Part shown: piece after piece, positions 5,515-60,839 of the stretch
How positions within the stretch are numbered: the first letter of the stretch is position 1
How the letters are laid out: every line of letters starts with the position of its first letter
Origin: Amaurobius ferox
Taxonomy: Eukaryota; Arthropoda; Arachnida; Araneae; Amaurobiidae
Direction of reading: 5' to 3'
NCBI GenBank assembly: GCA_951213105.1
Contig: OX578134.1
Span: 138,606,293 to 138,670,292, forward strand
DNA: 64,000 bases
Notes under the pieces: model-generated
Told to the model about the DNA's origin: nothing
Database searches by the model: none
What the model saw: the letters and a program-made list of their open reading frames with translations, nothing else
Translations under genes and position numbers: made by a program

Positions 5515-5736
5515 TTGCATAATTATAACGATTTTAAAAAAGAAAACGAAAATAAAGAAAATAAGCTAGCAAGGTCAAATTTAATTAAGTTCGTCGTAAA
5601 TTTCCACAAAAACATTTACGAAAAGCAAACACAAACCTATCCAGAGGAATTCGTTGAAGATGATGTTGATGTTAATATTGAAAAAGAATTGTCTCTCGAG
5701 AAGAAATTACAATTAGCTACAAATAAAAAAATCTGA
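5515..5736 (+). pseudogene. hAT transposase remnant, internal part
   Basis: A 73-codon open frame, very rich in Lys, Glu and Asn, sits between the hAT left end and the first family-A insertion. Its last codons run into the A-run where family A inserted. The dimerisation-domain fragment resumes only after the two inserted copies, at 7342. I infer that it encoded the stretch just upstream of the dimerisation domain, mainly from position: the residues alone do not identify the family. It has no ATG. The N-terminal zinc finger and the RNase H-like catalytic core are not visible, so it cannot make a working enzyme. Confidence 0.45.
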
Positions 5737-6514
5737 TGTGGCCAGCACATGACTTTCCCTGCAGACTTTATATCCACGTTCTGTTTATTTTAATTAAATT
5801 TATTTCACTTTTAATTCAATTTTCTTTCTCATTCGGTAACCGGACTTAATTTCATAGGTGGCGTAGAGAAAATACGAAAAACTAAAATATCTCGAGAACG
5901 GCTAGTCCTAGTGTAATGGGGTTGGTCTTATTCTTTTCTTCGTTAAAAATTACGTATTAAACAAGCATTTAGTGGATATATTTGAGCATGCGTAGTTCTT
6001 TAGTTTAGATTTTGATGATTTTTGCGGGCCATTTTGTAAGAAAAGGCAGGTTATTTTTTTTCGAATCGTACCAAAATCTAATCAGCACCAGGATGACTTA
6101 CAAGTGACTCATCTACCGAATTTTGTGAAATTCGGTCCAGTAGTTTTTTAGCTAGAGTGGATACAAGCTTTTGCGGGCCATTTCGCACAAAAAGGCGGGT
6201 TCTTTTATCCCGAATTGTACCCAAAACTAATCAGCACCTGCCCCGCCCACAAGTGGCTTACTTACCAAATTTTGTGAAATTCGGTCCATTAGTTTTTTAG
6301 TTACAGTGGATACAAAATCTGCACAGACAGACAGACAGACACACAGACAGACAGACACACACACACACAGACACACACACAGACGTCACGCTAAAAATGG
6401 TTTTTTCGTATTCTAGAGGTCTCGAAACGTGTAGATCCGTCGAAAACTCGAGTTGTGATTTTCGGCATGATTCCAATACTTTCCCTATACATTACCATGT
6501 ATTGCAGGGAAAGT
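5731..6514 (+). mobile_element. Family A element, copy 1
   Basis: It begins TCTGATGTGG and shortly afterwards ACTTTCCCTGCA (5752), and ends TGCAGGGAAAGT (6503-6514), so the inner ends form a 12-bp inverted repeat. The body holds two diverged copies of a roughly 150-bp unit (GCGGGCCATTT through AGAGTGGATACAA), a CAGA/CACA microsatellite (6321-6383), the block GACGTCACGCTAAAAATGG, and a terminal hairpin TTTCCCTATACAT...ATGTATTGCAGGGAAA. There is no coding capacity. Copy 2 follows directly, head to tail. Confidence 0.85.
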
Positions 6515-6516
6515 AA

Positions 6517-7160
6517 AAATCTGATGTGGGCAGCACATGACTTTCCCTGCAAACTTATATCCACGTTCTATTTATTTCAATTAAATGTAATTCACTTTTA
6601 ATTCAAATTTCGTTCTCATTCGGTAACCGGGCTTATTTTCAAAGGTGGCGTAGGGAAAGTACGAAAAACTAAAATATCTCGAGAACGGCTAGTCCTAGTG
6701 TAATGGGGTTGGTGTTATTCTTTTCGTCGTTAAACATTACGTATTAAACGGGCATTTAATGGATATATCTAAGTATACCAAGTTCTTTAGTTTAGATTTT
6801 GAAGATTTTTGCGGGCCGTTTTGCAAAAAAAGGCAGGTTCTTTTTTTCCGAATCGTACCAAAATCTAATCAGCACCAGAGTGACCTATACGTGACTCATC
6901 TACCGAATTTTGTGAAATTCGGTTCATTAGTTTTTCAGCTGGAGTGGATACAAGCTTTTGCGGGCCATTTCGCAAAAAAAGGCTGGTTCTTTTATTCCGA
7001 ATCGTACCCAAAACTAATCAGCACTAGCCCCGCCCACAAGTGACTTACCTACCAAATTTTGTGAAATTCGGTCGATTAGTTTTTTAGTTACAGTGGATAC
7101 AAAATCTGCACAGACAGACAGACAGACACACAGACACACAGACAGACAGACAGACACACG

Positions 7161-7192
<32 letters not shown>

Positions 7193-7341
7193 CACAGACA
7201 CACGCACAGACGTCACGCTAAAAATGGTTTTTTCGTATTCTAGGGGTCTCGAAACGTGTAGATCCGTCGAAAACTCGAGTTGTGATTTTCGGCATGATTC
7301 CAATACTTTCCCTATACATTACCATGTATTGCAGGGAAAGT
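6517..7341 (+). mobile_element. Family A element, copy 2
   Basis: It has the same structure as copy 1, with the 12-bp inner inverted repeat at 6540-6551 and 7330-7341 and a longer CAGA/CACA tract at 7110-7208. The join to copy 1 is only AAAAA between GT and TCTG. The frames 6759-7043 and 7088-7303 lie wholly in the repeat and are not genes. Confidence 0.85.
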
Positions 7342-7570
7342 AAAAATTGACACAAACAATAATACAAAAGTAATACAAAAAATCGATTTATCCCAAACCG
7401 TCAGAGTTGTTAGAAGTTGAGGCAAATATTTCGAGGAAGTATATCGCTCATTTTTAACAGTACCACCAACCAGCGTGGATGCAGAAAGAGCAGTTTCAAC
7501 TGCAGGTAATTTATGCACAAAAATACTCTTAATGACCGTTCAATAGATGCATTACGATCAAATTTAAAAA
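7342..7570 (+). pseudogene. hAT transposase C-terminal dimerisation-domain remnant
   Basis: The plus-strand frame reads YFEEVYRSFLTVPPTSVDAE and then RAVSTAGNL. This is the conserved start of the hAT C-terminal dimerisation domain, whose usual form is P.TS...ER.FS.AG. A one-base frameshift near 7528 moves the continuation (LNDRSIDALRSNL) into another frame, and a stop lies upstream. The segment is sandwiched between family-A copies 2 and 3, so the gene was cut at least twice by insertions. In an intact hAT protein this domain mediates transposase dimerisation. Here it is a relic, and the assignment of the domain itself is firm. Confidence 0.8.
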
Positions 7571-7572
7571 AA

Positions 7573-8333
7573 AATCTGATGTGGGCAGCATATGACTTTC
7601 CCTGCAGACTTATATTCACGTTCTAGTTATTTAAATTAATTTTAATTCAATTTTCGTTCTCATTTGAAAACTGGACTTATTTTCAAAAATGCTGTTGGAA
7701 AAATACGAAAAACTGAAATGTCTCGAGAACGGCTAGTCCTAGTGTAATGGGGTTGGTCTTATTCTTTTCTTCGCTAAAAGTTACGTATTAAACAAGCATT
7801 TAATGGCTATATTTGACCATACGTAGTTCTTAAGTTCAGATTTTGTTGATTTTTGCGGGTCATTTTGCAAAAAAAGGCAGGTATTTTTTTTTCGAATTAT
7901 ACCGAAATCTAATCAGCACCAGGGTGGCCTGCAAGCGACTTATCAACCAAATTTTGTGAAATTCGGTCCATTAGCTTTTCAGTTAGAGTGGATACAAGCT
8001 TTTGCGGACCATTTCGCAAAAAAAGGCGGGTTCTCTTAACCCGAGTCATACCCAAAACTAATCAGCACCAGATTCGTGCACAAGTGACTTACCTACCAAA
8101 TTTTATAAAATTCGGTCAATTAATTTTTTAGTTAGAGTGGATGCAAAATCTGCACAGACAGACAGACAGACACACAGACAGACACACAGACACACACACA
8201 GACGTCACGCTAAAAATAGTTTTTTCGTATTCTAGAGGTCTCGAAACGTATAGATCCGTCGAAAATTCGAGTTGCGATTTTCGACATGATTCCAATACTT
8301 TCCGTATACATTACCATGTATTGCAGGGAAAGT
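7573..8333 (+). mobile_element. Family A element, copy 3
   Basis: It has inner inverted repeats at 7595-7606 and 8322-8333 and a CAGA/CACA tract at 8153-8201. It is more diverged than copies 1, 2 and 4 (GACCATTTCGC, TCCGTATACATT). The left flank is a run of nine A continuing from the hAT remnant. Copy 4 follows head to tail. Confidence 0.85.
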
Positions 8334-8338
8334 AAAAA

Positions 8339-9135
8339 TCTGATGCGAGCAGCACATGACTTTCCCTGCAGACTTATATTAACGTTCTCTTTATTTTAAT
8401 TAAATTTATTTCACTTTTAATTAAATTTTCGTTCTCATTCGATAACCGGATTTATTTTCAAAGTTGGCGTAGGGAAAGTACGAAAAACTAAAATATCTCG
8501 AGAACGGCTAGTCCTAGTGTAATGGGTTTGGTCTTATTCTTTTCGTCGTTAAAAATTACGTATTAAATCAGCATTTAATGGATATATTTGAGAATACCCA
8601 GTTTTTTATTTTAGATTTTTGCAATTTTTGCGGGCCATTTTGCAAAAAAAGGCAGGTTATTTTTTTCTGAATCGCACCAAAATCTAATCAGCACCAGGGT
8701 GACCTATACGTGACTCATCTACCGAATTTTGTGAAATTCGGTCCATTAGTTTTTCAGCTACAGTGGATACAAGCTTTTGCGGGCCATTTCACAAAAAAGG
8801 CGGGTTCTTTTATTCCGAATCGTACCCAAAACTAATCAGCACCAGCCCCGCCCACAAGTGACTTACCTACAAAATTTTGTGAAATTCGGTCCATTAGTTT
8901 TTTAGTTAGAGTGGATACAAAATCTGCACAGACAGACAGACAGACACACAGACACACAGACAGACAGACACACAGACACACAGACACACAGACACACACA
9001 CAGACGTCACGCTAAAAATGGTTTTTTCATATTCTAGAGGTCTCGAAACGTGTAGATCCGTCGAAAACTCGAGTTGCGATTTTCGGCATGATTCCAATAC
9101 TTTCCCTATACATTACCATGTATTGCAGGGAAAGT
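8339..9135 (+). mobile_element. Family A element, copy 4
   Basis: Inner inverted repeats lie at 8359-8370 and 9124-9135, the CAGA/CACA tract at 8930-9003, and the terminal hairpin at 9099-9133. The 63-codon minus-strand frame 8906-9097 is a product of the microsatellite. Confidence 0.85.
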
Positions 9136-9330
9136 AATATGCAGTTAATAAATAAGTTCTTTTTTCTATTAATAAATGTTATATAACAAGATTTTTATGT
9201 GATATTTACTCTTCTTATTAATAATACTCTTTTTTTGTTCCTTTATAAATATTTTTTGTTTCTAATGTTATAAATTATTATTTTACTGCTGTTATTAATA
9301 ATATTTGATTATAACATTTGTTCCCTTATT
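9136..9330. other. AT-rich hAT-internal sequence between family-A copies
   Basis: Very AT-rich (many TTATTAATAAT stretches), probably the 3' untranslated part of the hAT element. Nothing else is visible. Confidence 0.5.
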
Positions 9331-10115
9331 ACTTTCCCTGCAATACATGGTAATGTATAGGGAAAGTATTGGAATCATGTCGAAAATCGCAACTCGAGTT
9401 TTCGACGGATCTACACGTTTCGAGACCTCTAGAATACGAAAAAAACATTTTTAGCGTGACGTCTGTGTGTGTGTCTGTCTGTCTGTGTGTCTGTCTGTCT
9501 GTGTGTCTGTGTGTCTGTCTGTGCAGATTTTGTATCCACTCTAACTAAAAAACTAATGGACCGAATTTCACAAAATTTTGTAGGTAAGTCACTTGTGGCC
9601 GGGGCTGGTGCCGATTACTTTTGGGTACGATTCAGAATAAAAGAACCCGCCTTTTTTGTGAAATGGCCCGCAAAAGCTTGTATCCACTGTAGCTGAAAAA
9701 CTAATGGACCGAATTTCACAAAATTCGGTAGATGAGTCACGTATAAGTCACCCTGGTGCTGATTGGATTTTGGTACGATTCAGAAAAAAAATAACCCGCC
9801 TTTTTTTGCAGAATGGCCCGCAAAAATCGTCCAAATCTGAACTAAAGAACTACGCATGCTCAAATATATCCATTAAATGCTTGTTTAATACGTAATTTTT
9901 AGCGAAGAAAAGAATAAGACCAACCCCATTACATTAGGACTTGCCGTTCTCGAGATATTTTAGTTTTTCGTATTTTCTCTACGCCACCTTTGAAAATAAG
10001 TCCGGTTACCGAATGAGAACGAAAATTGAATTATAAGTGAAATAAATTTAATTAAAATAAAGAGAACATGGATATAAGTCTGCAGGGAAAGTCATGTGCT
10101 GCCCACATCAGATTT
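9331..10115 (-). mobile_element. Family A element, copy 5 (inverted)
   Basis: This is a full copy on the minus strand. ACTTTCCCTGCA at 9331 is the 3' hairpin end and TGCAGGGAAAGT at 10081-10092 the 5' side, followed by CATGTGCTGCCCACATCAGA. It is a single copy rather than part of a tandem pair, which shows that the outer 20-odd bases beyond the inverted repeat belong to the element. The frames 9469-9696 and 9704-9895 are within it and meaningless. Confidence 0.85.
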
Positions 10116-10323
10116 TTTTATATTTGTACCTAACAAAATTGTTTATATTTTTACAGTTTATGCATTTTTTGCATAAAACTAATAAATATGGCAAAGAAAC
10201 AACTGTGTTTTTGTATCTTTTTTGAAAAATTCCAAATACCGGTATTAATACCGGTATTCCGGTATAACTTTAAAAAATACGGAATACCGATATTTTATTT
10301 TTGGTCCGGTATTGGAATCACTA

Positions 10324-15989: not shown

Positions 15990-17496
15990 ACCTCCTATTG
16001 GTTTGTCGGAAGCAGGATTATTCCGATAGGCTCTTGATGGCCACTAGCTGGGGCGAGTTTTCCTGTCATTATATCCCCTGGACTAGTCATAAATTCTGTT
16101 GCAAAGTGTTTTGTCATAAAGGTTTTGTATTGTTTTTTCCCACACTAGCTGGTACCTTATTTTATGGCCTGTCCATTCTCTCTAAGTATATATGAGCGCC
16201 ATGTCGCATTGTTTCACTTCTACATCACTGGAGAAAGAAAGATCACAAAATTGTGAATTTCATAAATTTTTATGATGTTTAAGTTCTTCATTATCTCTGG
16301 ATGTTTGCTCATTGTGTGACACTATTTTGTATAGTTTAGAATATATTTCGAGTGAAAGTAGGAAAAATGATGCAAAAAATTAATCTGATGAAAAGCATTT
16401 TTGCAACAAAACATATAGTTCAAAATATTAAACTTTTTTTTACACATTTATACATGGTACTCTATTTCCGATAACAAAGAAAATCATCATATTAAGAGAG
16501 TAAGTGTCGCCCATAAAATATGAAAAATGTGTATCTTAATTTTATTCTTAGAAGCAGAGGTATGTCGCACTCAAAAGTACATTTTGGATAATTACAAGTA
16601 GGAATAAAAGTATAATTTGGGAGAACATTATTACCTAAATTACGCATTATAACTTTTTGACTGAAATTTATTACTAATTATACGCATGATGAGTAAAGCA
16701 CATAATCTATAAAAGCCTTACTTACAGTTAAATATAAGGTATCAAATTAATTAACTGAGAATGTTCTGTCTTCTAGAATCTTGTCGAATTCGGGGTTTGC
16801 CGTGAAAACTTAATACAAGAACTCAATAGAGTTCTTTTTGGATACATATTTTTCTGTGTGGGTACCATAATAACTGAAAAAACTCGTGTAACACCATGAC
16901 ATGTTATATGTGGATATATCATGACAAAATCAGGAACTAGAAAGAATTGTTAGTAATTTGCATGAATGGGACATGATTTCTTTTATATTTTAAATATTCA
17001 TATAGCTTTATTTCCTTTAAGATGCAATGATTAGTGAAACCTTTGGAATTTCATTTTGGACATCAGCCTGTTAGACTTCCAGATAATTATTAATAATGTA
17101 ATTTAATTGTAAGAATCAAAGAAATCTGATTCATAAATATAATTCGGTATTGGAGAAAACTCATTACTCTTGCTTGATGACAGTGCAGTCAAAAAGACAT
17201 CATTAAAAATAAATTCTAGGCGAAAAAGAAACATTATTCACTGTAGTAATTGGGTAAACACATTATGAAAGAAAATATGTATGTAAAAAAATCTGTTTTC
17301 TGGTAAAAATTGAAAAATGGACGAGCCAAGGCATCGGAATAAATATGTTCTTAATTAGTGGATTTAAAATAATAATTGTCGAGATGATGCAAGGTATAAT
17401 ATATGGAAAATATGGGGTTTTCCTTAAAAGCTTGCTATAACGATCACGTTAACCATTAAATTCCATAACGAGTAATTAATATTTAATTTAGAAATA
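15990..17496. other. AT-rich sequence, no gene seen
   Basis: The first 200 bp (to about 16195) are more GC-rich and hold a 65-codon frame with no ATG-supported family. Otherwise nothing. Confidence 0.45.
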
Positions 17497-18656
17497 TACA
17501 TACATACATACATACATACATACATACATACATACATACATACATACATACATACATACATACATACATACATACATACATACATACATACATACATACA
17601 TACATACATACATACATACATACATACATACATACATACATACATACATACATACATACATACATACATACATACATACATACATACATACATACATACA
17701 TACATACATACATACATACATACATACATACATACATACATACATACATACATACATACATACATACATACATACATACATACATACATACATACATACA
17801 TACATACATACATACATACATACATACATACATACATACATACATACATACATACATACATACATACATACATACATACATACATACATACATACATACA
17901 TACATACATACATACATACATACATACATACATACATACATACATACATACATACATACATACATACATACATACATACATACATACATACATACATACA
18001 TACATACATACATACATACATACATACATACATACATACATACATACATACATACATACATACATACATACATACATACATACATACATACATACATACA
18101 TACATACATACATACATACATACATACATACATACATACATACATACATACATACATACATACATACATACATACATACATACATACATACATACATACA
18201 TACATACATACATACATACATACATACATACATACATACATACATACATACATACATACATACATACATACATACATACATACATACATACATACATACA
18301 TACATACATACATACATACATACATACATACATACATACATACATACATACATACATACATACATACATACATACATACATACATACATACATACATACA
18401 TACATACATACATACATACATACATACATACATACATACATACATACATACATACATACATACATACATACATACATACATACATACATACATACATACA
18501 TACATACATACATACATACATACATACATACATACATACATACATACATACATACATACATACATACATACATACATACATACATACATACATACATACA
18601 TACATACATACATACATACATACATACATACATACATACATACATACATACATACA

Positions 18657-18686
<30 letters not shown>
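17497..18686. repeat. Perfect (CATA)n tetranucleotide array, about 1.19 kb
   Basis: About 297 uninterrupted copies of the tetranucleotide were read without a single variant. The three minus-strand frames of 397-417 codons (MYVC repeats) are translations of the array and are not genes. Confidence 0.97.

Positions 18687-18732
<46 letters not shown>
18687..18732. repeat. (TA)n microsatellite at the end of the CATA array
   Basis: A pure TA run directly continues the CATA array and is followed by ACATTAATC. Confidence 0.95.

Positions 18733-20197: not shown

Positions 20198-20240
<43 letters not shown>
20198..20240. repeat. (TA)n microsatellite
   Basis: A TA run ends in CACA directly before the left direct repeat. 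A shorter TA run (21790-21808) precedes the right one in the same way. Confidence 0.9.
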
Positions 20241-20243
<3 letters not shown>

Positions 20244-20835: not shown

Positions 20836-20847
20836 AGCTCATCAATT

Positions 20848-21411: not shown

Positions 21412-21418
21412 ACATATA

Positions 21419-21720: not shown

Positions 21721-21809
21721 TGCATAAGATTCTAGTGGATATGCATAGGAAATAAATTCAACCTTGAATTTAATTACTGGCTTTTATATGATATATATAT
21801 ATATATATA

Positions 21810-22889: not shown

Positions 22890-23253
22890 TCAGTTGCTAT
22901 AGAGTCACTATTAGAATACAAATGAGATTATAGAGAAAGTTATGAATAATACATAATACTAAATCTATGTCCTTTAACGCCTGAGTCAGAAAGTCGTCCG
23001 TAAAAGATTAAATTTGGAAAGAAACTGATAAATTCTGAATACCAAAACCGTAGGTGCAGTGTAGAGACAAAAAGTCACTTACATGGGAGTGAAATGTGAA
23101 ATAAGAGGGAACACATTTAAAAGTATTGTTCCATTGAATAGAACATTTTGTAGATAGAACATGTGAATGGTTTTTTTTAGTAGGTTGGGTTATAAAAAGG
23201 GGTGAATTCTTGGAATTGATATTAGTAAGCTTAAAGAGAGTAGTTATAATTTT
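22890..23253 (+). repeat. Dispersed repeat R, copy 1
   Basis: The landmarks, in order, are ATTAGAATACAAATGAGA, GAATAATACATAATACTAAA, AAAAGATTAAATTTGG, GTGAAATGTGAAATAAGAGG and TTTAAAAGTATTG. The same series occurs on the same strand near 25327, 43095, 45225 and 46975. No conserved reading frame runs through the five copies, so I do not call it coding. Confidence 0.75.
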
Positions 23254-24270
23254 TACTTTCCTTATATACATAATGTATAAGGGAAGTATTGTGACGGGGT
23301 CGAAAATTCGAATTCGAGTTTTCGACGGGAGAGTAGGTTTCAAGTATCCCTGATCACGAATCAAACATTTTTGAAGTAATGTCTGTGTGTGTGTGTATGT
23401 TTGAGAAAGTATGTGTATGTGTGTGTGAAAGTGTGTGTGTGAAAGTATGTGTGTGTGCGTGTGTGAAAGTATATGTGTGTGTGCGTCAGTGAGACTGTGG
23501 AGACGATAACAGACGAACTAATGGACCGATTCGCACGAAATTTAGTACACAAATCACAATCTGCAAATACTGGGAGCCTATTGTTTTTATACGCAATCGA
23601 ATGTTCAGAATCCGTCCAAAATTTTCGAGCGAAATTTTGTGAAAATAGTCAAAAAATGAAAACCGCTAATAAAGTTACGCCAATAGACATTTCTTATGTA
23701 ATTTTTCATTAGAAAGCGATTGACTTAAATTTTAGATCCCTAACATGAACCGTTCTCGAGATATTGCGCATTTTTCAAAAAGTCATATAAAATAAAAAAA
23801 AATATTTCCTATTGAGAAACATGTTCACTTCTCATATGTAATACCATGCGATAAATTTGGTGACATCATTCTCGTGGATCTAGCTCGTTCCATTCATGAA
23901 AAAAGATACTTTGAGTAATACTTTTGTATTTGAAAGCCAATAGTGATTTATCTGCTGTAAGAATAACTTATTTCTTAGTCCATAATGCTTGTCGAGATTT
24001 TGGCGACGAATTTGGTGGAAAATCGCCAACTTGGCGACTTTTTAAATGTTGCTAAATTCACGAAAAACTCGCCAAATGGATAAAAATGAGGCTAAATAAA
24101 TGACAACTCATTGATGACGACGAAATGGAAAATGACGACTCATTGACGAAAATTTAATATCTTAGAAAGAATATAAATAACTACTATGAAAATAATCTAT
24201 TTTTTTTTTACTGTAAAAATAGTAAATTCATTGCATTATATAAGGAAAGTCATGTGCTGCCCACATCAGA
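23254..24270 (-). mobile_element. Family B element
   Basis: Read on the minus strand it starts TCTGATGTGGGCAGCACATG, followed by ACTTTCCTTATAT, the same 5' module as family A. It ends with a CA/TG microsatellite (23386-23490 on plus), CGAAAACTCGAATTCGAA, and a terminal hairpin CTTCCCTTATACATTATG...TAAGGAAAG. The body differs from family A. The frames 23361-23552 and 23473-23712 are within the repeat and not genes. Confidence 0.75.
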
Positions 24271-25326
24271 TTTGTTTTAGGAGGTTGGGTGAAAGGGGTG
24301 AATTTCTGGATATTAGTAAGCTTAAAAAAAGGTATTATAATTATTTTTCTAAATGCTGAGGATAGTAAGCTTTGTAAAGCAGCTTGTAAATTAAATGTTG
24401 AGACATTTAAATTCTCTTTTCTTTATGACGCTACTTAACACATGTCTGCGAATCTTTGTTAAATGATTAATATGCATACATAGCGTATTGTTACAAATAC
24501 CTCAAATGTTTTTTCTGCCTTTTGCATTTCCTTAAGGAAAAACTACCTTTAAAGGCTATCAGTTATTGTCGAGTTTGCATTACTTCTCCTCGGCGAAAAA
24601 TGTGACAAAATATCGCGAAAAAGGCGACTTTTGGAAACTTTTAGAATTTTGTAATTCGATCAAGAATTTACCAAGTGACTTTGATTTTTAGTGAAATTTT
24701 AACAGAATGTATATACATTAGGCATCATTCAGTTAGAAGGAGCTGGTGTGATAAATTTTTTTTAAAGACAGATCCGCATGTAAGTTTCCAATGGAAATTT
24801 TATATACTTAAATACAAATTTTGTACCACCCCTCAAATCTAACTTTTCGCATTTTCGGGGATTTCGTTTGATCGGGTCTAAGTGGTTTATGTACTAAAAG
24901 TTTGGCAATTGTTTCATTGCCAGTTTTGTATATAAGAAACCAGGATATTTTTCTTTCAAAAGATCTTCAAATGAATAAAGAAAAATTGCTTTATGGAACT
25001 CTCTTTATAAAGGCCGGAATAAAAAGTTAAATTTTGCACTCTTTTATTAAAACATGAAACTGCCGTAGTCGGAAAGTCTATTTTATTTGCAGAATTTCTT
25101 AAATTTGTATCATGTATCTGTTACCAATCCTTCCAAGAGATTTTTAGTAGTGAAATCTTACCCTGTATAATACCCCTGCATAATATTCCTGCAGCCTATA
25201 ACGAAAGCATTATTTTCCTTACCGAATGCATTTGAAATAAATACAAAAACATATAAATACACTTTTAAGTGGAAAAAATAAAATTAGAACAAAACAGAAG
25301 CTATACTAGAAAACTATTTTGCAGCT
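24271..25326. other. Unassigned sequence with R-like tail
   Basis: 24276-24350 repeats the tail of repeat R copy 1 (AGGTTGGGT, AAGGGGTGAATT, TATTAGTAAGCTTAAA). Stretches at 23995-24130 and 24590-24680 share TTGGCGAC-type motifs with 44750-44830. No gene is visible. Confidence 0.45.
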
Positions 25327-47744: not shown

Positions 47745-48021
47745 AACTCAATATGCAATTTTCCTTTTGATTTCATATACCTTTTTAAGTTGTATAATAA
47801 AACGATACTGTTGGATAAGTGTAAAATGTCTAAATTTTAGATCGGCAACATCTGATTATTCACATCTCCGTTATATGTAAGTATGCGTTTATGGCATGCA
47901 TCAAGTGCACGCCCACCGGGTGGAGTGGCTACTAATGTTAATACTCAAATGCTTCATCGTCAAAAACTTCATCATTTGTGGTCCTATTCGGGCGAAATAA
48001 GCTATATTTAAATAATCTATC

Positions 48022-48870
48022 TGTGAGACCAGGAGACATTTATGCAGTTTTGAGATTTGTATGATATGGACAACGAAACAAAGCGCAGACTCGTAGACAC
48101 TATTTTATGACGGAGTATTTGAACCTCAGGCGAAATGATGTGGCAACAAGCAGATAATTGAAGATATATTTAGCGAATTCAGAGCGTTGTGACTAGAATG
48201 GCAGTTCAGAATGTCCAAGAGTGTGTTTTATAGAATTTAGGTATTAACCGTCTAAGAGTGTTGTGTTAAGTACAATTGGAGGCAATGACCATTCAAGAGT
48301 GCGCTTTTAAAATAAATTGGAGGCTAGGAATGCCCAATTGTTATATACAGTAAATTGGAGTCCAAAATATCCACGACGACAAACGGAGGTATGTGCAAGT
48401 CTGCATTATATAATAGGTCGAATTCGAGTATATGATTAAAAAAAATATTATAAAGTTTGGTCTCTCACGTGCATGTTCTGCTCTTGAAATGTGTATATAA
48501 AAAAATCGTGGGCGTGGTAGCTCACTGGTCAGCGCGCAGGAATTGCACTCGGTAGACCCTGGGTTCGATTCCCTCCGCTGGAAAAAGAAAAAAACTGCCG
48601 CCGTGTTCATGCGGAGTACCATCACGCTAAACATGTGGGTCCGCAAGTCTTCAGGAGTGCGGAACTAATCCTGTAAAACCGAGAGATAGGCCAGGTCCAC
48701 ACTGCTGTCTCCAAGTCAGTATATAAAATTAATGTAAGTTTAATCGTAATCATAATATGTGTAATAAATGTTTATTTTAAAAGTTAAAATTGTGGAATTT
48801 AATGTATGTGAATTAAGGATTATATTTTAGGAACTCGCACAAAGAATAAATGGTGGGCTATTGCGACCAA
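48022..48870 (+). repeat. LTR-like repeat, copy 1, split by a SINE
   Basis: It starts TGTGAGACCAGGAGACATTT and contains TTGGTCTCTCACGTGCATG, like the GGTCTCACATGTTCCTCC part of the LTRs at 10848 and 26394. It ends near TAGGAACTCGCACAAAG and GGGCTATTGCG. A diverged second copy lies at 49195-49790 in the same orientation. A SINE (48503-48718) interrupts it. No target duplication was found, so the boundaries are approximate. Confidence 0.6.
48503..48718 (+). mobile_element. tRNA-derived SINE, copy 2
   Basis: The head GTGGTAGCTCACTGGTCAGC is an A-box region, and the B box GGGTTCGATTCCC lies at 48561-48573. The body has GTGTTCATGCGGAGTACC and AACATGTGGGTCCGCAAGTC. The flanks GTATATAAAA (48493-48502 and 48719-48728) are a perfect 10-bp target duplication. 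It is shorter than copy 3 because the distal body is different. Confidence 0.88.
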
Positions 48871-49194
48871 GATATTCAATGTACATATATACGATTCGCG
48901 ATCAGTAATTTAATTAAGAATGATAATTCGACCCAAAGAATCATTTATTATTTATAAAGGAAATAAACTGCAACCAAATGTTTATTAAAAATGTGCACTA
49001 CACTAACAAAACTGTATAACTGAAAAAAAAGCAAAACATATCGAAACCTTTCTTTGGATATCTTCTATCATCGTCAGACGTAACACACACCAATCTTTCC
49101 CCCATTCGAAATATGCGAAAAGAGTGATGTTTCACATTAGTCTAAAACGAGTAACAAAGTTACTCACTATTTCTTCGAACATTGGAGAAGTCAG
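48871..49194. other. Unassigned sequence between the two LTR-like repeats
   Basis: About 320 bp without coding signs. If the repeats are a true LTR pair this is all that remains of an interior. Confidence 0.4.
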
Positions 49195-49790
49195 AATCTA
49201 ACATTATAAAAGATATGTGCGTACATTATATGTGCGTATTTGGACCTCAAGCGAAATGATGTAGCAACAAGAAGATAATTCAAGATTTTTCAGTGAGAAT
49301 CGAGACAATGACAGTCTAAGAATGATGAGTTAAGAGTTGGAGTCAAACCGTCCTAGAAGGAGCGGTAGAAATTCGACAATTAGAGTTCAAGAAGCGAAGT
49401 GTGCGTTTTGTAGTCAATTGGAGCAATGTATGTCCAAAAGTGCGTTTCGGTGTCCATGACAAACAGCAATGAATGTTCTAGAGTGAGTTTCATTTTCCAT
49501 GACAAACAGAGGTATGTGCCAATCTTCATTATACAATAGGTCGAATACATGATTTTGGGATAATATTATAAAGCCTGGTCTCACAAGTACATTTTCTCCT
49601 CCTTTCTCCTCTTTACATTTTCTCCTCCTTATAAAATTAATGTAAGTGTAATCGTAATCATAGTATGTGCAATGAATAATGTTTATTTTAAATGTTAAAA
49701 TTCTGGAATTCAATATGTAGTGTTGTAATTAATTATTTTATTTTAGGAACTTGTACAAAGAATTAATGTTGGGTTATTGCGGTTAATTCA
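49195..49790 (+). repeat. LTR-like repeat, copy 2 (5' truncated)
   Basis: TTTGGACCTCAAGCGAAATG, TACAATAGGTCGAATACATG, TAATGTAAGTGTAATCGTAA and TAGGAACTTGTACAAAG follow the order of copy 1. The TTTCTCCTCCTT region is locally duplicated (49577-49632). The TGTGAGACC start is missing. Confidence 0.6.
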
Positions 49791-49793
49791 ATT

Positions 49794-49952
49794 ATGGGCT
49801 TAATGTCTAGCTTCTTCTATTCTTTTGTGTACAACAATATCTGTGTCGCGCGTGTTAGAAAATCTAAGTTACCAACAGTCGTGAAATATGGTGCAAGGGT
49901 AATTGAATCCTTAGAACGATGTGCTTTGCAAGATTTTGATAATCCAAATTAG
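49794..49952 (+). CDS. Candidate 52-codon frame after the LTR-like repeat (uncertain)
   Basis: The ATG at 49794-49796 opens a frame ending with KLPTVVKYGARVIESLERCA and LQDFDNPN before TAG. The residue mix is protein-like. It begins immediately after the end of the LTR-like repeat, so it could be an element-internal remnant or an unrelated exon. No family is recognised. Confidence 0.2.
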   Translation: MGLMSSFFYSFVYNNICVARVRKSKLPTVVKYGARVIESLERCALQDFDNPN

Positions 49953-51694
49953 TGTTTTAGTTATTTTTTGTTGAAATACAATTCTGAACAATTTCCCCAC
50001 AATATAGCTCTTTAGCGATAGACAATATTATTACAAGGTTTTCATCCTGAAACCATCATAGACATCGGAGAACTTTTTTTCCAACGCGATTTAAACGGAA
50101 TTTGTAAAGTAATTCCTTCATATTTATTTAATAATTTATTTTTAAATATATGAAAATATGTTTATTTTAAGGGAATTTATATTTCTTCGGATTGAAGAAT
50201 TGAAAATTCGCGCGATTCAAATGTTTGACATAAATTCGAAGATATATCTTTGCATTCTAACAAAAAATATTTAATGACTCTATTTCTGAATTTTCTGCGA
50301 GTTGCTAATTGAGTCTATAAAAATTTCGATTTTAATTTCTATCGCCAGCGAAAAAATAAATAAGTTTCCCTTTTCTTTATGACGTCACGACTGGGGAGTC
50401 ACCTTCGCTATGGGTAGCAGTGACGTATTTAATTATTTTTTCATTATAGAGTCGCTAAATCGAATCGTATAATGAAATTAGATAAAACGGAGTTCGTTAA
50501 TGACTTCTGTTTTCCGTTTCGGAAATTGAATGGAATTATAATATTGTATGCATAATATAGTGGGCGCTTATTTAGGTTCCGAGCTACTCCGGGCAATTGA
50601 TTCTAGTATGTAACGAATGCAAAGATGTACAACAAAGTTGTAAATATTAACCAATACCTATTATCGCATTGTATTGCTTTAAAACATTGGACTTAAGATC
50701 AAGAAAGTTAGAAGTTCAAATGTACATATAGCATTATAAATATACATATATGTACATGTAACACCGTGCATATAAATGTACATATAGCACAGTGCCATAT
50801 ATATTTAATAGTGCCAAATATTTAATAGTGTCAAATATATTTAATAGTGCCAATAATATATTTCATATATTTTATACTGCCAAATATATGCCCAATATAT
50901 TGAATTTGGCAACAATGTCAGGTTCATTCGGCTTAAAATCTCTTTCGTATCTGAACTCTGAACTCTTCAGAGTACATTTCGTGAAATGTTTAGTGACTAT
51001 ACATTGACAGTGAGTATGGTGAATATATATTGAGGATGTGTAATGGTTTGACACAATCGTTAAATACTAGGACGTTTATCGTGACGCGCTAAGGAAGCGA
51101 AGCGGGGTATCCAGTTAGATAATTAGTAACTGAGACGTTTATTTCATGAAAGTAGTACAAAATATTCAATCCAAAATGTTAAGTATTAAATAATTAATAT
51201 ACAAGACAACCTAGTACAATTGCACACTTTATACCACAAATAAATTTATGAAGGAGGTGGCCATTACTCCAACTATGTTACATAGCTCTCTTTTGAGGAG
51301 CGGTAACAAATGCAATAATAATATCCACGGGTGACGAAGGGAAGGCCAGAATAGAAAACCTTACTTGTGAGGAAATGTTATGATTTTAAGAGAAGCTTAA
51401 ATGGAAAAAAACTAAACATCATCAGCAGGTGGCGAGAGAAAGATCAGCAAAGAAAACCTGACAGCTGGAAAACTATTATGCTCATCAAGAAAGCCTAAAT
51501 GTAATTAAGTGGAATGTTCTTCAACTCGACATTCTCATATCATAATCTATTTTTAAGTAGCTTGTGGGGTGTATTTTTTTGTTCTAATTTTACAAGTAAA
51601 ATTTGGAAAAATCGGTATCGTTGAACCAAATGATTACAATTATAGTGTGATATCCTTCACTTTAAAGGGTTTGACAAAATATTTCAATTGACAC
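49953..51694. other. AT-rich sequence, no gene seen
   Basis: 50780-50900 has a loose ATATTTAATAGTGCCA repeat. The frames at 50792-51007 and 50872-51054 overlap it. Nothing further. Confidence 0.45.
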
Positions 51695-52212
51695 CATACT
51701 TGGGCATGTAAGGGGTACGTTACTCCCGACGGGGGAACCAATGCGTTCACGAACGCAAAAATTGTATCCCGGCTGTTTTGACAACTATGAAATTATAAAG
51801 TCTCGTGATCATAGGGCCATAAGTAATCAATTTTATGCATGATTATGGCAAATTTTCTCCTATGTTGCCATGTTTAAAAGAAGTATAGAATTCAATAAAA
51901 ATAAAAAATAAAAATTTCGAATAAATTTCAAAGTCTTCGTTCAAGTTTATAAAAATTCTATATAGTTCTAGATTTTTTTTATAACAAAGCCGGATATAAA
52001 GTTTCGTGGAAATCCATTAACATTTATGGCAGTTATGGTGTACACAAGAAATCGACCACAGACATCCGACAGACAGACAAACAGGCATCACTCAAAAAAT
52101 AGGCAAACGGTATTCAGGCGGTCTTGAAACATATATTAGCATCAAAATCTTGAAATCGAAAATCTTCGTGAAAACAATACTTTCTCAATACTGAGTATGA
52201 GAAAATAAAAAT
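51695..52212 (+). mobile_element. Family C element (approximate 5' end)
   Basis: The 3' part reads, in order: GACAGACAGACAAACAGG, CATCACTCAAAAAATAGG, GGTCTTGAAAC, CTTGAAATCGAAAATC, and AATACTTTCTCAATACTGAG followed by TATGAGAAA. These correspond one by one to the microsatellite, CGTCACGCTAAAAATGG, GGTCTCGAAAC, CGAAAAC and AATACTTTCCC hairpin of family A. The body upstream is unrelated to A. The left end is only a guess. Confidence 0.6.
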
Positions 52213-53079
52213 TAAATTAACAGCATTAGCTGGTGGTGTGAGAATGTTAATCTTACATGTGGAAAAATACTTTGCTTATCCAAGAAGCATAAATGTAAAA
52301 ATTAAGTTAACAATATTAATACGGCTTTAAAGCAAAACGAAATTTCTTCTTCGGGAAATGAAAAATACAGCGATTGGCTTCGGATGGTAGAAACTATTTG
52401 TCACTGCATGTTTACCGCTTTCTGTCTTATCTGTTGTGACTGCTCTGTCTTGAATCCTTAAGCAGAAAGGCGTTTCGCTTCCAAAATTTTACGATGCCGT
52501 TAATTTGTAGTTTCACTCTGATTTATTAAACAACGCTTTTCACAAATAATATTTTGCATCAGTTAGAGCGAAGTTTCGAAGTAAAATATTTTACCTTCTT
52601 TTACTATATTTAATTTCTCCTTTTCATGCATTTGGTACATACAATTAGATATAGGAAACTCGATTTGAATCTTAATGAATAATCAACTGGAATGTAATGC
52701 ATTTTGTAGCATTCTTAAAGAATTGTTTTACATATATAAAAGCAGTAGAACGTGTCTCATAACTTCTATTTACTTTGAAGTGCATCAAGAATTCCGAGCA
52801 CACCCTTTGAAAAATTGCATTACGCTATTATGCCATATGGAATGCATTTTCTAAATGACTTTGTGTGAAAGACCTTTTAAGGGATTTGCTTTTGCCTAAA
52901 TGGACAAGACGTGCCTGCGGTTCCATACAGGACTTTTTTCAATATTTCCATTTGTGCTAGTACCGACATTTTTTTATTTGCTACATGCATATATTTTATC
53001 AAACGTTATTGAAGTTTATTACTTCAAAAGATTTCTGAAGAATAACTATAATAAAAATATTTATGATAAAACTTTTTTA
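52213..53079. other. AT-rich sequence, no gene supported
   Basis: A TATATAAAAG motif near 52734 and a 63-codon hydrophobic frame at 52900-53091 are present, but the frame runs into the inverted repeat of element X, and I do not accept it as a gene. Confidence 0.4.
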
Positions 53080-53438
53080 TCACATCAATAAGACGTTAAT
53101 ATAACATTAAAAATTAGAGCGCTTTCAGACGTCAGACGTCCATCCTGAATGGCAATTGAGGAAAAAAAAGGGGGTTGCACGGGCTTTTATACTTAGTCAA
53201 AAATCGCAAACAAAATTTGCATACGAATTGTGAGATTGCACAAGAAAAAATTTGAATGAAAAACATTTAATTATAAAATTCATACAGTAGAAATCAAATG
53301 TAAGTAACGGCATTAGAAGACAAAATAACTGAATTGGATGTTCTTAATTTGATCACATTAATAAGAGTTTAAAACCACTTTAAAAAACAGAGTACTTTCG
53401 AACATAAGACATCCATCATCAGCTGCAATTGAGAAAAA

Positions 53439-54623
53439 TCTGATGTGGGCAGCACATGACTTTCCCTGCAGACTTATATCCACGTTCTCTTTATTTTAAT
53501 TACATTTATTTCACTTTTATTGATTTTTCGTTCTCATTCGGTAACCGGGCTTATTTTCAAAGGTGGCGTAGGGAAAGTACGAAAAACTAAAATATCTCGA
53601 GAACGGCTAGTCCTAGTGTAATGGGGTTGGTCTTATTATTTTCGTCGTTAAACATTACGCATTAAACGGGCATTTTATGGATATATCTGAGTATACCTAG
53701 TTCTTTAGTTTAGATTTTGAAGATTCTTGCGGGCCGTTTTGCAAAAAAAGGCAGGTTATTTTTTTCCGAATCGTACCAAAATCTAATCAGCACCAGAGTG
53801 ACCTATACGTGACTCATCTACCGAATTTTGTGAAATTCGGTCCATTAGTTTTTCAGCTAGAGTGGATACAAGCTTTTGCGGGCCATTTCGCAAAAAAATG
53901 CGGGTTCTTTTATTCCGAATCGTACCCAAAACTAATCAGCACCAGCCCCGCCCACAAGTGACTTACCTACCAAATTTATATTATACCTAGTTCTTTAGTT
54001 TAGATTTTGAAGATTTTTGCGGGCCGTTTTGCAAAAAAAGGCAGGTTATTTTTTTCCGAATCGTACCAAAATCTAATCAGCACCAGAGTGACCTATACGT
54101 GACTCATCTACCGAATTTTGTGAAATTCGGTCCATTAGTTTTTCAGCTAGAGTGGATACAAGCTTTTGCGGGCCATTTCGCAAAAAAATGCGGGTTCTTT
54201 TATTCCGAATCGTACCCAAAACTAATCAGCACCAGCCCCGCCCACAAGTGACTTACCTACCAAATTTATATTATACCTAGTTCTTTAGTTTAGATTTTGA
54301 AGATTTTTGCGGGCCGTTTTGCAAAAAAAGGCAGGTTATTTTTTTCCGAATCGTACCAAAATCTAATCAGCACCAGAGTGACCTATACGTGACTCATCTA
54401 CCGAATTTTGTGAAATTCGGTCCATTAGTTTTTCAGCTAGAGTGGATACAAGCTTTTGCGGGCCATTTCGCAAAAAAATGCGGGTTCTTTTATTCCGAAT
54501 CGTACCCAAAACTAATCAGCACCAGCCCCGCCCACAAGTGACTTACCTACCAAATTTTGTGAAATTCGGTCCATTAGTTTTTTAGTTACAGTGGATACAA
54601 AATCTGCACAGACAGACAGACAC

Positions 54624-54658
<35 letters not shown>

Positions 54659-54819
54659 CACAGACAGACAGACAGACACACGCACATACGTCACGCTAAA
54701 AATGGTTTTTTCGTATTCTAGAGGTCTCGAAACGTGTAGATCCGTCGAAAACTCGAGTTGTGATTTTCGGCATGATTCCAATACTTTCCCTATACATTAC
54801 CATGTATTGCAGGGAAAGT
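53439..54819 (+). mobile_element. Family A element, copy 6, with internal triplication
   Basis: The inner inverted repeat lies at 53459-53470 and 54808-54819. Its central 290 bp is present three times in tandem (53691-53980, 53981-54270, 54271-54560), the junctions being AAATTTATATTATACCTAG. Subtracting two units leaves about 780 bp, the normal family length. The CAGA tract (54607-54684) and terminal hairpin are intact. Confidence 0.9.
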
Positions 54820-54824
54820 AAAAA

Positions 54825-55589
54825 TCTGATGTGGGCAGCACATGACTTTCCCTGCAGACTTATATCCACGTTCTCTTTATTTTAATTACATTTATTTCAC
54901 TTTTATTGAATTTTCGTTCTCATTCGGTAACCGGGCTTATTTTCAAAGGTGGCGTAGGGAAAGTACGAAAAACTAAAATATCTCGAGAACGGCTAATCCT
55001 AGTGTAATGGGGTTGGTCTTATTATTTTCGTCGTTAAACATTACGTATTAAACGGGCATTTTATGGATATATCTGAGTATACCTAGTTCTTTAGTTTAGA
55101 TTTTGAAGATTTTTGCGGGCCGTTTTGCAAAAAAAGGCAGGTTATTTTTTTCCGAATCGTACCAAAATCTAATCAGCACCAGAGTGACCTATACGTGACT
55201 CATCTACCGAATTTTGTGAAATTCGGTCCATTAGTTTTTCAGCTAGAGTGGATACAAGCTTTTGCGGGCCATTTCGCAAAAAAATGCGGGTTCTTTTATT
55301 CCGAATCGTACCCAAAACTAATCAGCACCAGCCCCGCCCACAAGTGATTTACCTACCAAATTTTGTGAAATTCGGTCCATTAGTTTTTTAGTTACAGTGG
55401 ATACAAAATCTGCACAGACAGACAGACACACAGACAGACAGACAGACACACGCACAGACGTCACGCTAAAAATGGTTTTTTCGTATTCTAGAGGTCTCGA
55501 AACGTGTAGATCCGTCGAAAACTCGAGTTGTGATTTTCGGTATGATTCCAATACTTTCCCTATACATTACCATGTATTGCAGGGAAAGT
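54825..55589 (+). mobile_element. Family A element, copy 7
   Basis: It is head to tail after copy 6, with the inner inverted repeat at 54845-54856 and 55578-55589 and a shorter CAGA tract. It is nearly identical to copy 6 outside the triplication, so the pair probably arose together. Confidence 0.88.
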
Positions 55590-55630
55590 AAAAAAAGGGG
55601 ATACATAAGCTATTATACGCAGTCAACAAC

Positions 55631-57030: not shown

Positions 57031-57104
57031 GCAATTTTGAGCAGTGTACAGCTGTCACATTAAAATGCATACTTTTTGTTTTATATTTTTTTCAAAATTG
57101 ATGA

Positions 57105-57430: not shown

Positions 57431-58833
57431 ATCTGTATAAATAAAATTAAAAATCTGTCTGTCTGTCTGTTTGTCGCGTCACACGGGAGAACGGCTGAAC
57501 TGAATTTGATGAAATTTTGTCGGTAGCCTGGAAATAGTCCCACTTAAAATGTAGTCCATATTTGGAGTTTCTATGACTAGTGCTTCTTGAGATATTAGTA
57601 AAAAACGAAATTTTCGTTTGTCTCATCATCACGGGAGAATGGCTTAACAGAATTTGATGAAATTTTGTGCATAGCCTTGAAATAGCCCTCGATAAATTTA
57701 GTCCAAGTTTCGAGTATATAAGACCAGAGGTTGTCGAGATATTAATGAAAAACGAAACTTTTTTCTAGGAGTTCTACTCTCTAACTCCGTGGTTTATCCA
57801 AACGAAAAGCTTGAAAATCGTTTGAAAGTGAATTAAAACATTATCTCATTAATGTTTGATGGGAGATATTTTGAGCTAATTAGTCAATTTCTGAAAACAT
57901 GAATTGTTTGAAACATGATTTAAATGGGAAATCTGTCTCCATGGTTTATTTTGCACAAGATTTTACTGAACAATGAAAAGTATAAAGAAATCAAAATGGT
58001 TATTTAATTTCGTAGTTTATGAGGAAGATTCTATCTTATACCATGTTGCTCAGAAACGCAATTAAATTGAATTTAACTGTTAATTTTAATTATTATTTTT
58101 TTGATTTGAATAATAAATAAATGTATATAAAAATATATGTTAGAAAAGAACGATTTGATTTTTCTTATAGCATTTTTGACTGGATAATATCAATTACGGT
58201 CTTCAGGTTTAAACGTTATTATTATTGATATTTTCGGGGATTATTGATTAAGGGATTATTGATATTTTCAAGTTATTATGCCATTGTTTTATTATGACAA
58301 AAATTATTTAAACTCATATATTGTACGTTGTACGAGTAATCTTCTACAAATGCACGGGTATATCTTCTAATCAAAGAGAATATAAGTGGTACAGGTAAAT
58401 TGACATGTGTTTTGATATATATTGGAATCAATTACGATCTTCTGGTATAAAGAGTGTCGGGATTACTGATACTTTCAATGTATTACGTCATCTCTTTTAC
58501 TTTGGCAGAGATTTTTGAAACTTATATTGTAATACGGGTAATCTTCTACTAACACACTGGCATATTTTCTATTCTGCGACAATATAAGTAGTACGGGATT
58601 GCATATATTGGTTGAATTCCTTTTTTTTTTTTGTAAATTTGCTTACAAAGGGGGCCAGGATGTTTTATTCTTCAGATCTGCCCCTGAAGATAATTTTGAA
58701 TAGTGAGAACAGATATTCTTAAACTTCTCTTTTGGAGCAATAAATTTAATATTTTAACAGAATTTGCACATGATTGCGAATTATAAGCTACTTTATATTA
58801 TATACTCCGCACGAAGAACGGGTATGCTGCTAG
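57431..58833 (-). mobile_element. Family E repeat, copy 2
   Basis: This is the reverse-orientation copy of 14875-15986. It begins ATCTGTATAAATAAAATT with a CTGT microsatellite (57455-57471) and ends AACGGGTATGCTGCTAG. GGGAGAACGGCTGAACTGAA occurs twice (about 57486 and 57631). The block CTTCAGATCTGCCCCTGAAG near 58670 corresponds to GGCAGATCTGAAGAATAAAA at 15088. Confidence 0.7.
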
Positions 58834-59149
58834 TAATTCAATAAATTCGAACCTTACGTCATCATTTTTACAAAATTTTAATATGTGTAAATAAATAGAA
58901 TTTATACCTTTTTTACAGAATGAAATGAATTATGTCTTACTTAAGAAGATTGATCTGATACATCATACACTTTTAATATTTAAATATAGAATTTAAGTAT
59001 TTACAGCAAACAAAAATTATATACAGTAGTATATTTTCTCTTGAGATATAAGAGTAATAATGTAAACCTAAAAGATAAAAAAAATGCATTTTAAATAACA
59101 AAAAATTGGCTTATTTTATTAACTGAATAAAGTTCTGTATATAGTTTAA
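58834..59149. other. AT-rich sequence, no gene seen
   Basis: No feature can be supported. Confidence 0.5.
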
Positions 59150-59604
59150 TATCCTACATTCCCCTTTTCCCTCTCTGCTTAAATAAAGTAGTACGTCTTT
59201 TGTAATTACCTGAGAGAAATATTAAGATTGACATCCCTTTTAACTGGCAAATAAAGGTAGCCACACATAAAATTAGTAATGTTATTACCAAATTAGCAAG
59301 CACGATGGAACTTTAGTAAAATTAATTTTTTTATTTGTTATCATAAAGTAAGATGAAAAATATGGGGAAAGAAATATGTTTGCTGTACAACTTTCCATGA
59401 AAATGCGTTCATTATTTGCATATTATGCAACAACGTTTAATGTCAATTAATAATATTAACAATATTTTTTGTACAAGGAAATTCACGGCACAGAGAAAAT
59501 GGGGACATCACATGGTTTTAATTATAGGCTATAATTGGGTTTTCTTCTGTATTATTATTTTTATATATTTAAACCATATTTGTATTTCTTATGGCGTAAT
59601 ATAC

Positions 59605-60073
59605 AAGAAATTATTTATAAAATATGGATTTAAATAAATTGCATTTTTAATAAAGAAACCTGAAATATTTTACAAGACGCTGACTTTTGAAAATACTGAA
59701 AAGTCTTGATTATAATTTATCTTTGAACAGTGGTGGTGGTGGTGGTGGTGGTGGTGTGGGGGGGGGGATGTATGTGTGTGTGTGTGTGTGTGTGTGTGGT
59801 GGGGGTAATTTACCTCATTTTGTTATTAAAATAAAAAATTTGATATGAGTATCACATGATTTTCCCTACAGCCTCAAATACATTTTTAATTTTATGTTTT
59901 TAGCAATTCATTGTTTATAAAATATGGATTTAAATACATTGCATTTCCAATAAAGAAACTTTCATCATTTTAAGATGCTAAATTTTGAAAATACTGAAAA
60001 GTCTTGATAACAATTTATTTTCGAACAGTGGGGTGGGATGAGGGTAATTTAACTCATTCTGTTATTAAAATAA
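59605..60073. repeat. Tandem duplication of about 300 bp with a truncated family-A start
   Basis: TTTATAAAATATGGATTTAA through GAAAATACTGAAAAGTCTTG to GTTATTAAAATAAAAAA occurs twice (from 59616 and from 59919). After the first copy comes a family-A-like 5' end (TTGATATGAGTATCACATGA then TTTTCCCTACAG, 59838-59871) that breaks off. After the second comes the complete copy 8. Confidence 0.7.
59731..59808 (+). repeat. G-rich microsatellite: GGT, G10, then TG
   Basis: GGT repeats, then GGGGGGGGGG, a TG run and GGTGGGGG. At least four closely spaced G-runs lie on the plus strand. Confidence 0.9.
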
Positions 60074-60077
60074 AAAA

Positions 60078-60839
60078 TCTGATGTGGGTAGCACATGACT
60101 TTCCCTACAGTCTCAAATACATTTTATCTTTATTTTTTATTAATTCATTAAATCGAATTTAATTGTACAAAATAACACACAAAATTATTTGAAATTACAC
60201 TGAATATGTACTTTTAACTCACTTTTCCTTTTCATTTGGTAACTGGACGTATTTTTACAGGTTGTGCAGCAAAAATGCAAAAATACTAAAATATCGCGAG
60301 AACTGCTAGTCCCAGAGTAATGGTGTTGGTCGTATTCTGTTCATTTAAAAAAAATTATATATACGTATGGGCATACGTATTCTTTTATTTTAGATTTTGA
60401 CGATTTTGCAAGAAGAGGCAGGTTTCTGTTTTCCGAATCGTAACAAAATCTAATAAGCACCAGAGTAACCCACAAGTAACTTATCTACCAAGTTTTACGA
60501 AATTTGGTCTATTAGTTGCTTAGCTAGAATGTATACATACGATTAATTGGCGGACCATTTCGCGAAAAAAAAACAACGCAGATTCTTTTATTCCAAATCA
60601 TACCGAAATCCAATCAGCATTAGGGTCAACCACAAGTGACTTACCTACAAAATGTTATGAAATTAGGTCAGTTAGTGGAATTAGAGTACATACATTGCAC
60701 AGATACACACACAGACGTCACGCTAAAAATTTCGTGTTCTAAAGGTCCTGAAACGCGAGATCCGTCGAAAATTCGAGATGTGTTTTTTGACACGATTCCA
60801 ATACTTTCTCTATACATTACCATGTATTGCAGTGAAAGT
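60078..60839 (+). mobile_element. Family A element, copy 8 (old)
   Basis: It has TCTGATGTGGGTAGCACATG, ACTTTCCCTACA at 60098, and TGCAGTGAAAGT at 60828-60839. The CAGA tract is reduced to CAGATACACACACAGA, and there are many substitutions against the other copies, so it is the oldest copy seen. The unoccupied site is preserved in the other half of the segmental duplication near 33312-33336. Confidence 0.8.

What the first reader, a model, noticed from the sequence alone, without database searches (positions are those of the whole stretch)
5731..60839. A superfamily of non-autonomous elements with a shared 3' module but different bodies
Families A (eight copies), B (23254-24270), C (51695-52212) and D (3128-3240) share, in fixed order: a CAGA/CA microsatellite, a TCAC..CTAAAAA or similar block, a GGTCT(C/T)GAAAC-like block, CGAAAA, AATACTTTCYY, and a terminal hairpin (TTTCCC...GGGAAA in A, TTTCTC...GAGAAA in C). 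Their bodies are otherwise unrelated. A conserved 3' end with exchangeable bodies is what one expects if one enzyme recognises that end, and the conserved microsatellite just inside it may be functional. I know of no named superfamily with exactly this layout.
Basis: partly seen in the sequence, partly recalled or inferred. Interest (0 to 1): 0.75.

Follow-up and report, generated by a model that had tools for sequence, protein, structure and literature searches.

The report
DINE-1-like Helentron elements and autonomous partner

Summary
The repeats are real, but the class is known. Its "3' module" is the 5' end: TT, 12-bp subTIR, inverted repeat (the "hairpin"), microsatellite. In A1-A7 the body is a 149-bp central repeat, two or more copies. 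The 26-nt 3' end occurs exactly 60,887 times in the 3.56-Gb genome (control 0). B is an internal-deletion derivative. One copy sits in a T-run of a family-A core repeat without target-site duplication. A second locus has A-type ends around a Rep-bearing frame (candidate; the middle was not read). C shares only the 5' end; its other end was not found. Verdict: new member of a known kind.

The parts
2842..3337 (+). D: degraded B-type HINE; 5' subTIR from 2843, 38/51-bp tandem array 2882-3129 inside the 5' end, 3' subTIR + palindrome 3301-3332
   Evidence: aligns to two parts of the 17-kb Helentron (a 5'-end copy and its 3' end) at 77.5% and 76.5%; subTIRs 9/12
5731..6517 (-). A1: family-A HINE, head-to-tail with A2
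   Evidence: subTIRs 12/12
6518..7344 (-). A2: family-A HINE
   Evidence: subTIRs 12/12
7574..8336 (-). A3: family-A HINE, head-to-tail with A4
   Evidence: subTIRs 12/12
8337..9138 (-). A4: family-A HINE
   Evidence: subTIRs 12/12
9327..10115 (+). A5: family-A HINE, opposite orientation
   Evidence: subTIRs 12/12
23252..24273 (+). B: HINE with subTIR ACTTTCCTTATA, internal-deletion derivative of the 17-kb Helentron
   Evidence: subTIRs 12/12
51695..52212 (-).
53437..54822 (-). A6: family-A HINE with the central repeat array expanded (290-bp unit x3)
   Evidence: subTIRs 12/12
54823..55592 (-). A7: family-A HINE, used as reference copy; head-to-tail with A6
   Evidence: subTIRs 12/12
55550..55592 (-).
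   Evidence: fold z -6.2 on the same sequence
55414..55459 (-). A7 GTCT/GTGT microsatellite
55111..55406 (-). A7 central repeats, 149 bp x 2.0
54825..54856 (-). A7 3' end: subTIR TGCAGGGAAAGT plus palindrome ATGTG-CTGCC-CACAT
   Evidence: the palindrome does not fold better than shuffles (z 0.49)
59838..60842 (-). A8: diverged family-A HINE 60077-60842 plus an extra partial copy of its 3' end at 59839-59870
   Evidence: subTIRs 10/12; no tandem array of core repeats listed by TRF here

Best explanation
A, B and D are HINEs: non-autonomous copies mobilised by Helentrons, the endonuclease-encoding branch of the Helitron (rolling-circle) transposons. Shown: a shared 5' end (subTIR, inverted repeat, microsatellite) and a shared 3' end (subTIR, palindrome); 17-kb elements with B-type 5' and shared 3' ends that encode Rep, PIF1 helicase and an endonuclease; B as their deletion derivative; one insertion in a T-run without target-site duplication; head-to-tail arrays of A. 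Inferred from the published model: the Rep domain nicks at the 5' terminus, the helicase unwinds one strand, the 3' palindrome marks the stop, and the single-strand intermediate joins into TT. Bodies can vary because only the ends are needed. The microsatellite is a usual part of the class; no function for it was shown here.
For: Layout matches the passages and sections seen of PMC4067079, PMC7492417 and PMC2374699. Eleven 3' ends (0-7 mismatches) and eight 5' ends (0-2 mismatches) in the window, against random bests of 11 and 15. Genome-wide, the 26-nt 3' end occurs exactly 60,887 times (30,314 + 30,573), reversed control 0; the B-type 35-mer occurs 15,379 times, control 0. Two copies on different contigs align over 17,017 bp at 99.59%; the block ends 6 nt beyond the 30-nt 3' motif and 3 nt beyond the 5' motif. 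Pfam on the 1,874-aa frame: PIF1 3.7e-27, Helitron_like_N 6.5e-25, DUF6570 5.1e-19, Exo_endo_phos 1.7e-6 (28.4 bits, cut-off 24.5). The frame contains VEFQARGSPHEH, with the S that Thomas et al. give as diagnostic of Helentrons. B aligns to that element's first about 800 nt at 85% and its last 74 at 89%. In the four alignments printed, the joined flanks of the C12 copy run across the junction into family-A core repeats.
Against: No full-length partner of family A was read: at C5 the ends and a Rep hit in an 1,876-aa frame are in place, but the middle was not fetched, and the nearest A-type 3' end has 5 mismatches. For one of the four flanks of the two 17-kb copies part is withheld, only 3 of the 30 neighbouring letters being readable, so the break at the 3' end rests on the C12 copy and its family-A flank. 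The empty-site test is one site. C lacks a demonstrated 3' end. No RPA gene, reported for the mite Helentron, was recognised in the 4 of 12 further frames of 85 aa or more that were sent to Pfam. The 3' palindrome is no more stable than shuffles (z 0.49). PMC2374699 speaks of target-site duplications for DINE-1, unlike PMC4067079 and PMC7492417. No tree was built and no activity measured.
Confidence: 0.95

Rival explanations
1. Cut-and-paste MITEs: short inverted repeats recognised by a DDE transposase.
For: 12-bp inverted repeats are present; DINE-1 was called a MITE in PMC2374699, which also speaks of target-site duplications.
Against: The inverted repeats are subterminal and asymmetric, with a palindrome on one side only; the partner encodes Rep, helicase and endonuclease; no duplication at the one junction examined; head-to-tail tandems at 10 of 30 loci, a clustered sample.
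Confidence: 0.02
2. Retroposons (SINE-like) sharing a tail recognised by a LINE reverse transcriptase, as a one-shared-end picture would suggest.
For: T-rich flanks; the endonuclease region also matches PF14529 (named endonuclease-reverse transcriptase) below its cut-off.
Against: Both ends are conserved; no reverse-transcriptase family was among the Pfam matches up to 0.001, and the PF14529 match lies in the endonuclease region; no duplication at the one junction examined.
Confidence: 0.01
3. Canonical Helitrons (TC...CTRR ends, A-T insertion) rather than Helentrons.
For: Stronger Helitron_like_N matches, up to 231 bits, are abundant in this genome; whether those are canonical Helitrons was not tested.
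Against: No CTRR end; subTIRs present; insertion in a T-run; the protein of the matching element has the C-terminal endonuclease and the Helentron S in the Rep motif.
Confidence: 0.02

Closest known systems
DINE-1 / INE-1 (Drosophila), PMC2374699 (passages)
   Same: subTIRs of 13 bp, partial inverted repeat beside the 5' subTIR, GTCY-rich microsatellite in the 5' block, variable central repeats, stem-loop just after the 3' subTIR, TT preference; central repeats unrelated between species
   Different: Sequences differ (subTIRs of 12 bp here); 60,887 exact 3' ends here against hundreds of copies tabulated for three species in the passage seen; two subTIR types share one 3' palindrome; that paper speaks of target-site duplications
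HINE / Helentron (Metaseiulus mite and others), PMC4067079 (passages, sections 6 and 7)
   Same: Deletion derivatives of Rep-helicase-endonuclease elements; a minus-orientation gene also reported for a D. ananassae Helentron; T-run insertion without duplication
   Different: The 3' subTIR lies about 20 nt from the end here, against about 38-60 bp in the mite; no RPA gene recognised (4 of 12 further frames tested); the 5' end is present three times in the 17-kb element
Pearl / Cg_HINE (bivalves), PMC7492417 (passages, section 9)
   Same: Microsatellite followed by short arrays of satellite-like repeats (about 160 bp in Pearl) between conserved flanks; related flanks with unrelated bodies; T-rich/TT sites, no duplication
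   Different: Host and sequences differ; in B no central tandem array was detected

Membership tests
Helentron / HINE | Matching subterminal inverted repeats of 11 bp or more at both ends | tested here: met
   12/12 in A1-A7 and B; 10/12 in A8 and 9/12 in D, both diverged; for C the 3' copy was not found
Helentron / HINE | Short palindrome near the 3' end, after the 3' subTIR | tested here: met
   ATGTG-CTGCC-CACAT in A and B; its fold is not stronger than shuffles, z 0.49; not found in C
DINE-1 / Cg_HINE type | Inverted repeat complementary to the 5' subTIR, then GTCY microsatellite | tested here: met
   A. B has the inverted repeat, but its microsatellite is mostly GT/GTAT rather than GTCY
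Pearl / Cg_HINE | Central satellite-like tandem repeats | tested here: met
   149-bp repeats x2 or more in A1-A7; no array detected in B
Helentron / HINE | Insertion in T-rich/TT sites, no target-site duplication | tested here: met
   One paralogous-junction test only. The 30 sampled 3' ends are no test, since the search pattern itself ends in TTT
Helentron | Autonomous partner with Rep, PIF1 helicase and C-terminal endonuclease | tested here: met
   for B-type ends; A-type only a candidate
Helentron | S in the Rep motif GSPHxH | tested here: met
   VEFQARGSPHEH in P0001, rule from PMC4067079 section 7; the second signature (F/Y w/l/y/k R) reads YER here, so fits only in part
Helentron | Separate clade from Helitrons in a Rep/helicase tree | not tested
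   No tree built; the named protein relatives listed are animal proteins with largely the same domains
Helentron | RPA gene (reported for the mite Helentron) | tested here: inconclusive
   4 of 12 further frames sent to Pfam, no RPA match
Canonical Helitron | 5' TC and 3' CTRR ends, A-T insertion | tested here: not met
   Ends are TT-ACTTTCC...CATCAGATT

The most novel reading that the evidence does not exclude
Ends and enzyme modules are traded among Helentrons: two subTIR types (A and B) share one 3' palindrome, and the elements between these ends carry the Rep gene in opposite orientations (antisense in the 17-kb B-type copies, sense at the C5 A-type candidate). One 3' terminator palindrome would then be read by several proteins while the subTIR pair gives specificity, and head-to-tail amplification would be a trait of the A ends (10 of 16 A-type against 0 of 14 B-type loci, a clustered sample).
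Probability: 0.3. Interest if true: 0.45.

Novelty: new member of a known kind. Interest (0 to 1): 0.25.

Why it matters
It places an abundant repeat (more than 60,000 exact ends) in a named class and supplies two near-identical full-length partners, useful for annotating this genome and for testing which terminal parts Helentron proteins recognise. Two subTIR types sharing one 3' palindrome are a natural experiment on that question.

Tried and rejected
A third 3'-end-like pair at 20237 and 21806 was dropped: 10 and 13 mismatches against a random best of 11, and both lie in a direct repeat of about 600 bp flanking a frame that reads like a reverse transcriptase. A match at 34791 (10 mismatches) was dropped as isolated. 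Other rows with 11-13 mismatches were treated as chance or as 5' ends hit by the subTIR alone.

Within-family compensatory change was looked for in 18 distinct A-type and 9 distinct B-type 5' ends. Most changes are one-sided and often break the pair; one A-type sequence has a change on both sides at one pair. That test gives little support to the hairpin; the clearer support is between families (one hairpin pair; three subTIR positions). C was tested for a 3' end in 48001-52215 without success. A genome DNA search with an 87-nt end gave no candidates; the tool skips very common words. A second family of related elements (C22 and C9 copies) was compared, but its ends were not resolved. In the window, Rfam at gathering scores and ARAGORN gave no match. 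The A-type 35-mer count, the C-type count and the genome search with the Helentron protein did not complete, so no genome-wide A:B ratio is given.
Full report
Observation. The window is C1:138606293-138670292 of an unnamed 3.56-Gb genome. Repeats of about 0.8 kb with 149-bp internal tandem repeats are obvious. Scanning both strands for the two ends of the best copies finds eleven 3' ends with 0-7 mismatches over 32 nt and eight 5' ends with 0-2 mismatches over 43 nt; thirty Markov-random windows gave at best 11 and 15 mismatches. The elements, C included, cover 9,165 bp, 14% of the window (interval list entered by hand). The 5' ends of A, B, C and D align well above 500 shuffles each (D was given whole, and a few microsatellite letters were left in the others).

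Orientation and anatomy. Family B has the same plan with subTIRs ACTTTCCTTATA/TATAAGGAAAGT, a GT-rich microsatellite and no central array detected. The three positions that separate the A and B 5' subTIRs (8, 10 and 11) are matched by the partner changes at the 3' end, so A1-A7 and B each keep 12/12 complementary subTIRs. D is a worn B-type element with both ends. C aligns only at the 5' end, and its sequence just inside the microsatellite does not align to A or B above shuffles.

Genome-wide. The exact 26-nt 3' end occurs 60,887 times, its reversed control 0. Of the 30 fetched (the first listed, all on one contig, several clustered), 16 are A-type and 14 B-type by nearest subTIR, and 10 of 30 run straight into another 5' end, all of them A-type. 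The B-type 35-mer occurs 15,379 times; the A-type count did not complete.

The autonomous partner. Pfam PF14214 (Helitron_like_N) gives 151 matches in this genome, with 150 of 299 candidates scored. The best reach 231 bits; among those of about 85-95 bits some have frames of up to 2,186 aa. Two of these, at C1:140722209-140739219 and C12:42058962-42075962, align at 99.59% over 17,017 bp. The block ends 6 nt beyond a shared 3' end (GGAAAGTCATGTGTTGCCCACATCAGATTT, one mismatch) on one side and 3 nt beyond a B-type 5' end (two mismatches) on the other, after which the readable flanks differ. One of the four flanks is partly withheld, so the 3' break rests on the C12 copy. The frame of 1,875 aa stop to stop (2,084 aa in the C12 copy) has DUF6570, Helitron_like_N, PIF1 and Exo_endo_phos, and GSPHEH. 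It is antisense to the 5'-to-3' direction of the element, as reported for one D. ananassae Helentron. The B-type 5' end is present three times, about 860-880 nt apart, at that end. B aligns to the two ends of this element at 85% and 89%, the relation published for HINEs and Helentrons.

Insertion. The C12 copy lies inside a family-A core repeat. In the four alignments printed, its joined flanks run across the junction into window A copies with a length difference of about one base, so there is no duplication. This is one site; PMC2374699 speaks of duplications for DINE-1, PMC4067079 and PMC7492417 found none.

Family A partner. At C5, an A-type 5' end (1 mismatch; C5:117929452) precedes a Helitron_like_N hit at C5:117937503 in an 1,876-aa frame. 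A-type 3' ends follow at C5:117944476 (5 mismatches, followed by a truncated A copy) and C5:117945197 (0 mismatches), the latter beginning a head-to-tail series of A elements. A7 positions 2-487 match the start at 90.6% over 522 columns. A B-type 3' end (3 mismatches) lies outside, upstream.

Literature. Seen: PMC4067079 (abstract, passages, sections 6 and 7), PMC7492417 (abstract, passages, section 9), PMC2374699 (passages). They describe the same layout, TT or T-rich preference, and related flanks with unrelated central repeats. Of only the listings were seen for all other papers; 'Helentron' with 'spider' listed one paper, on Tigger transposons. I make no claim that this family is absent from print.

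Judgement. The unexpected details are the single 3' palindrome shared by two subTIR types, the opposite gene orientation between the B-type partner and the A-type candidate, and the head-to-tail arrays seen only with A ends in the sample.

Noticed in passing
window 4960-10320: A1-A5 sit inside what looks like a hAT-type transposon: the stretch between A2 and A3 reads like a hAT C-terminal dimerisation region (recalled, no search made), with CCGGTATT-rich repeats near both outer edges.
   Followed up: no
window 20237-22420: A frame of 207 aa that reads like a Penelope-type reverse transcriptase (YVDDVLLW...NFLDI, recalled; Pfam gave only a sub-threshold unrelated hit) is flanked by direct repeats of about 600 bp.
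   Followed up: partly
window 57450-57762: 147-bp repeat x2 preceded by a short (GTCT)n tract; may be another HINE-like body.
   Followed up: no
window 17496-18730: ATAC microsatellite of 309 units, 99% matches.
   Followed up: no
window 35973-37014: Frames on the minus strand that read like pieces of a mariner-type transposase (recalled); one has helix-turn-helix matches below the Pfam cut-offs.
   Followed up: partly
L031/L037 (C22 and C9 copies): A second family of related elements, 96-98% identical between the two copies, protein 34% identical to the 17-kb one (no endonuclease match at 0.001). Upstream of its gene lies a B-type-looking HINE (5' end at 818, 3' end at 2494 of L031); in the C9 copy another element of HINE-like look begins in the T-run where the two copies stop aligning.
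   Followed up: partly
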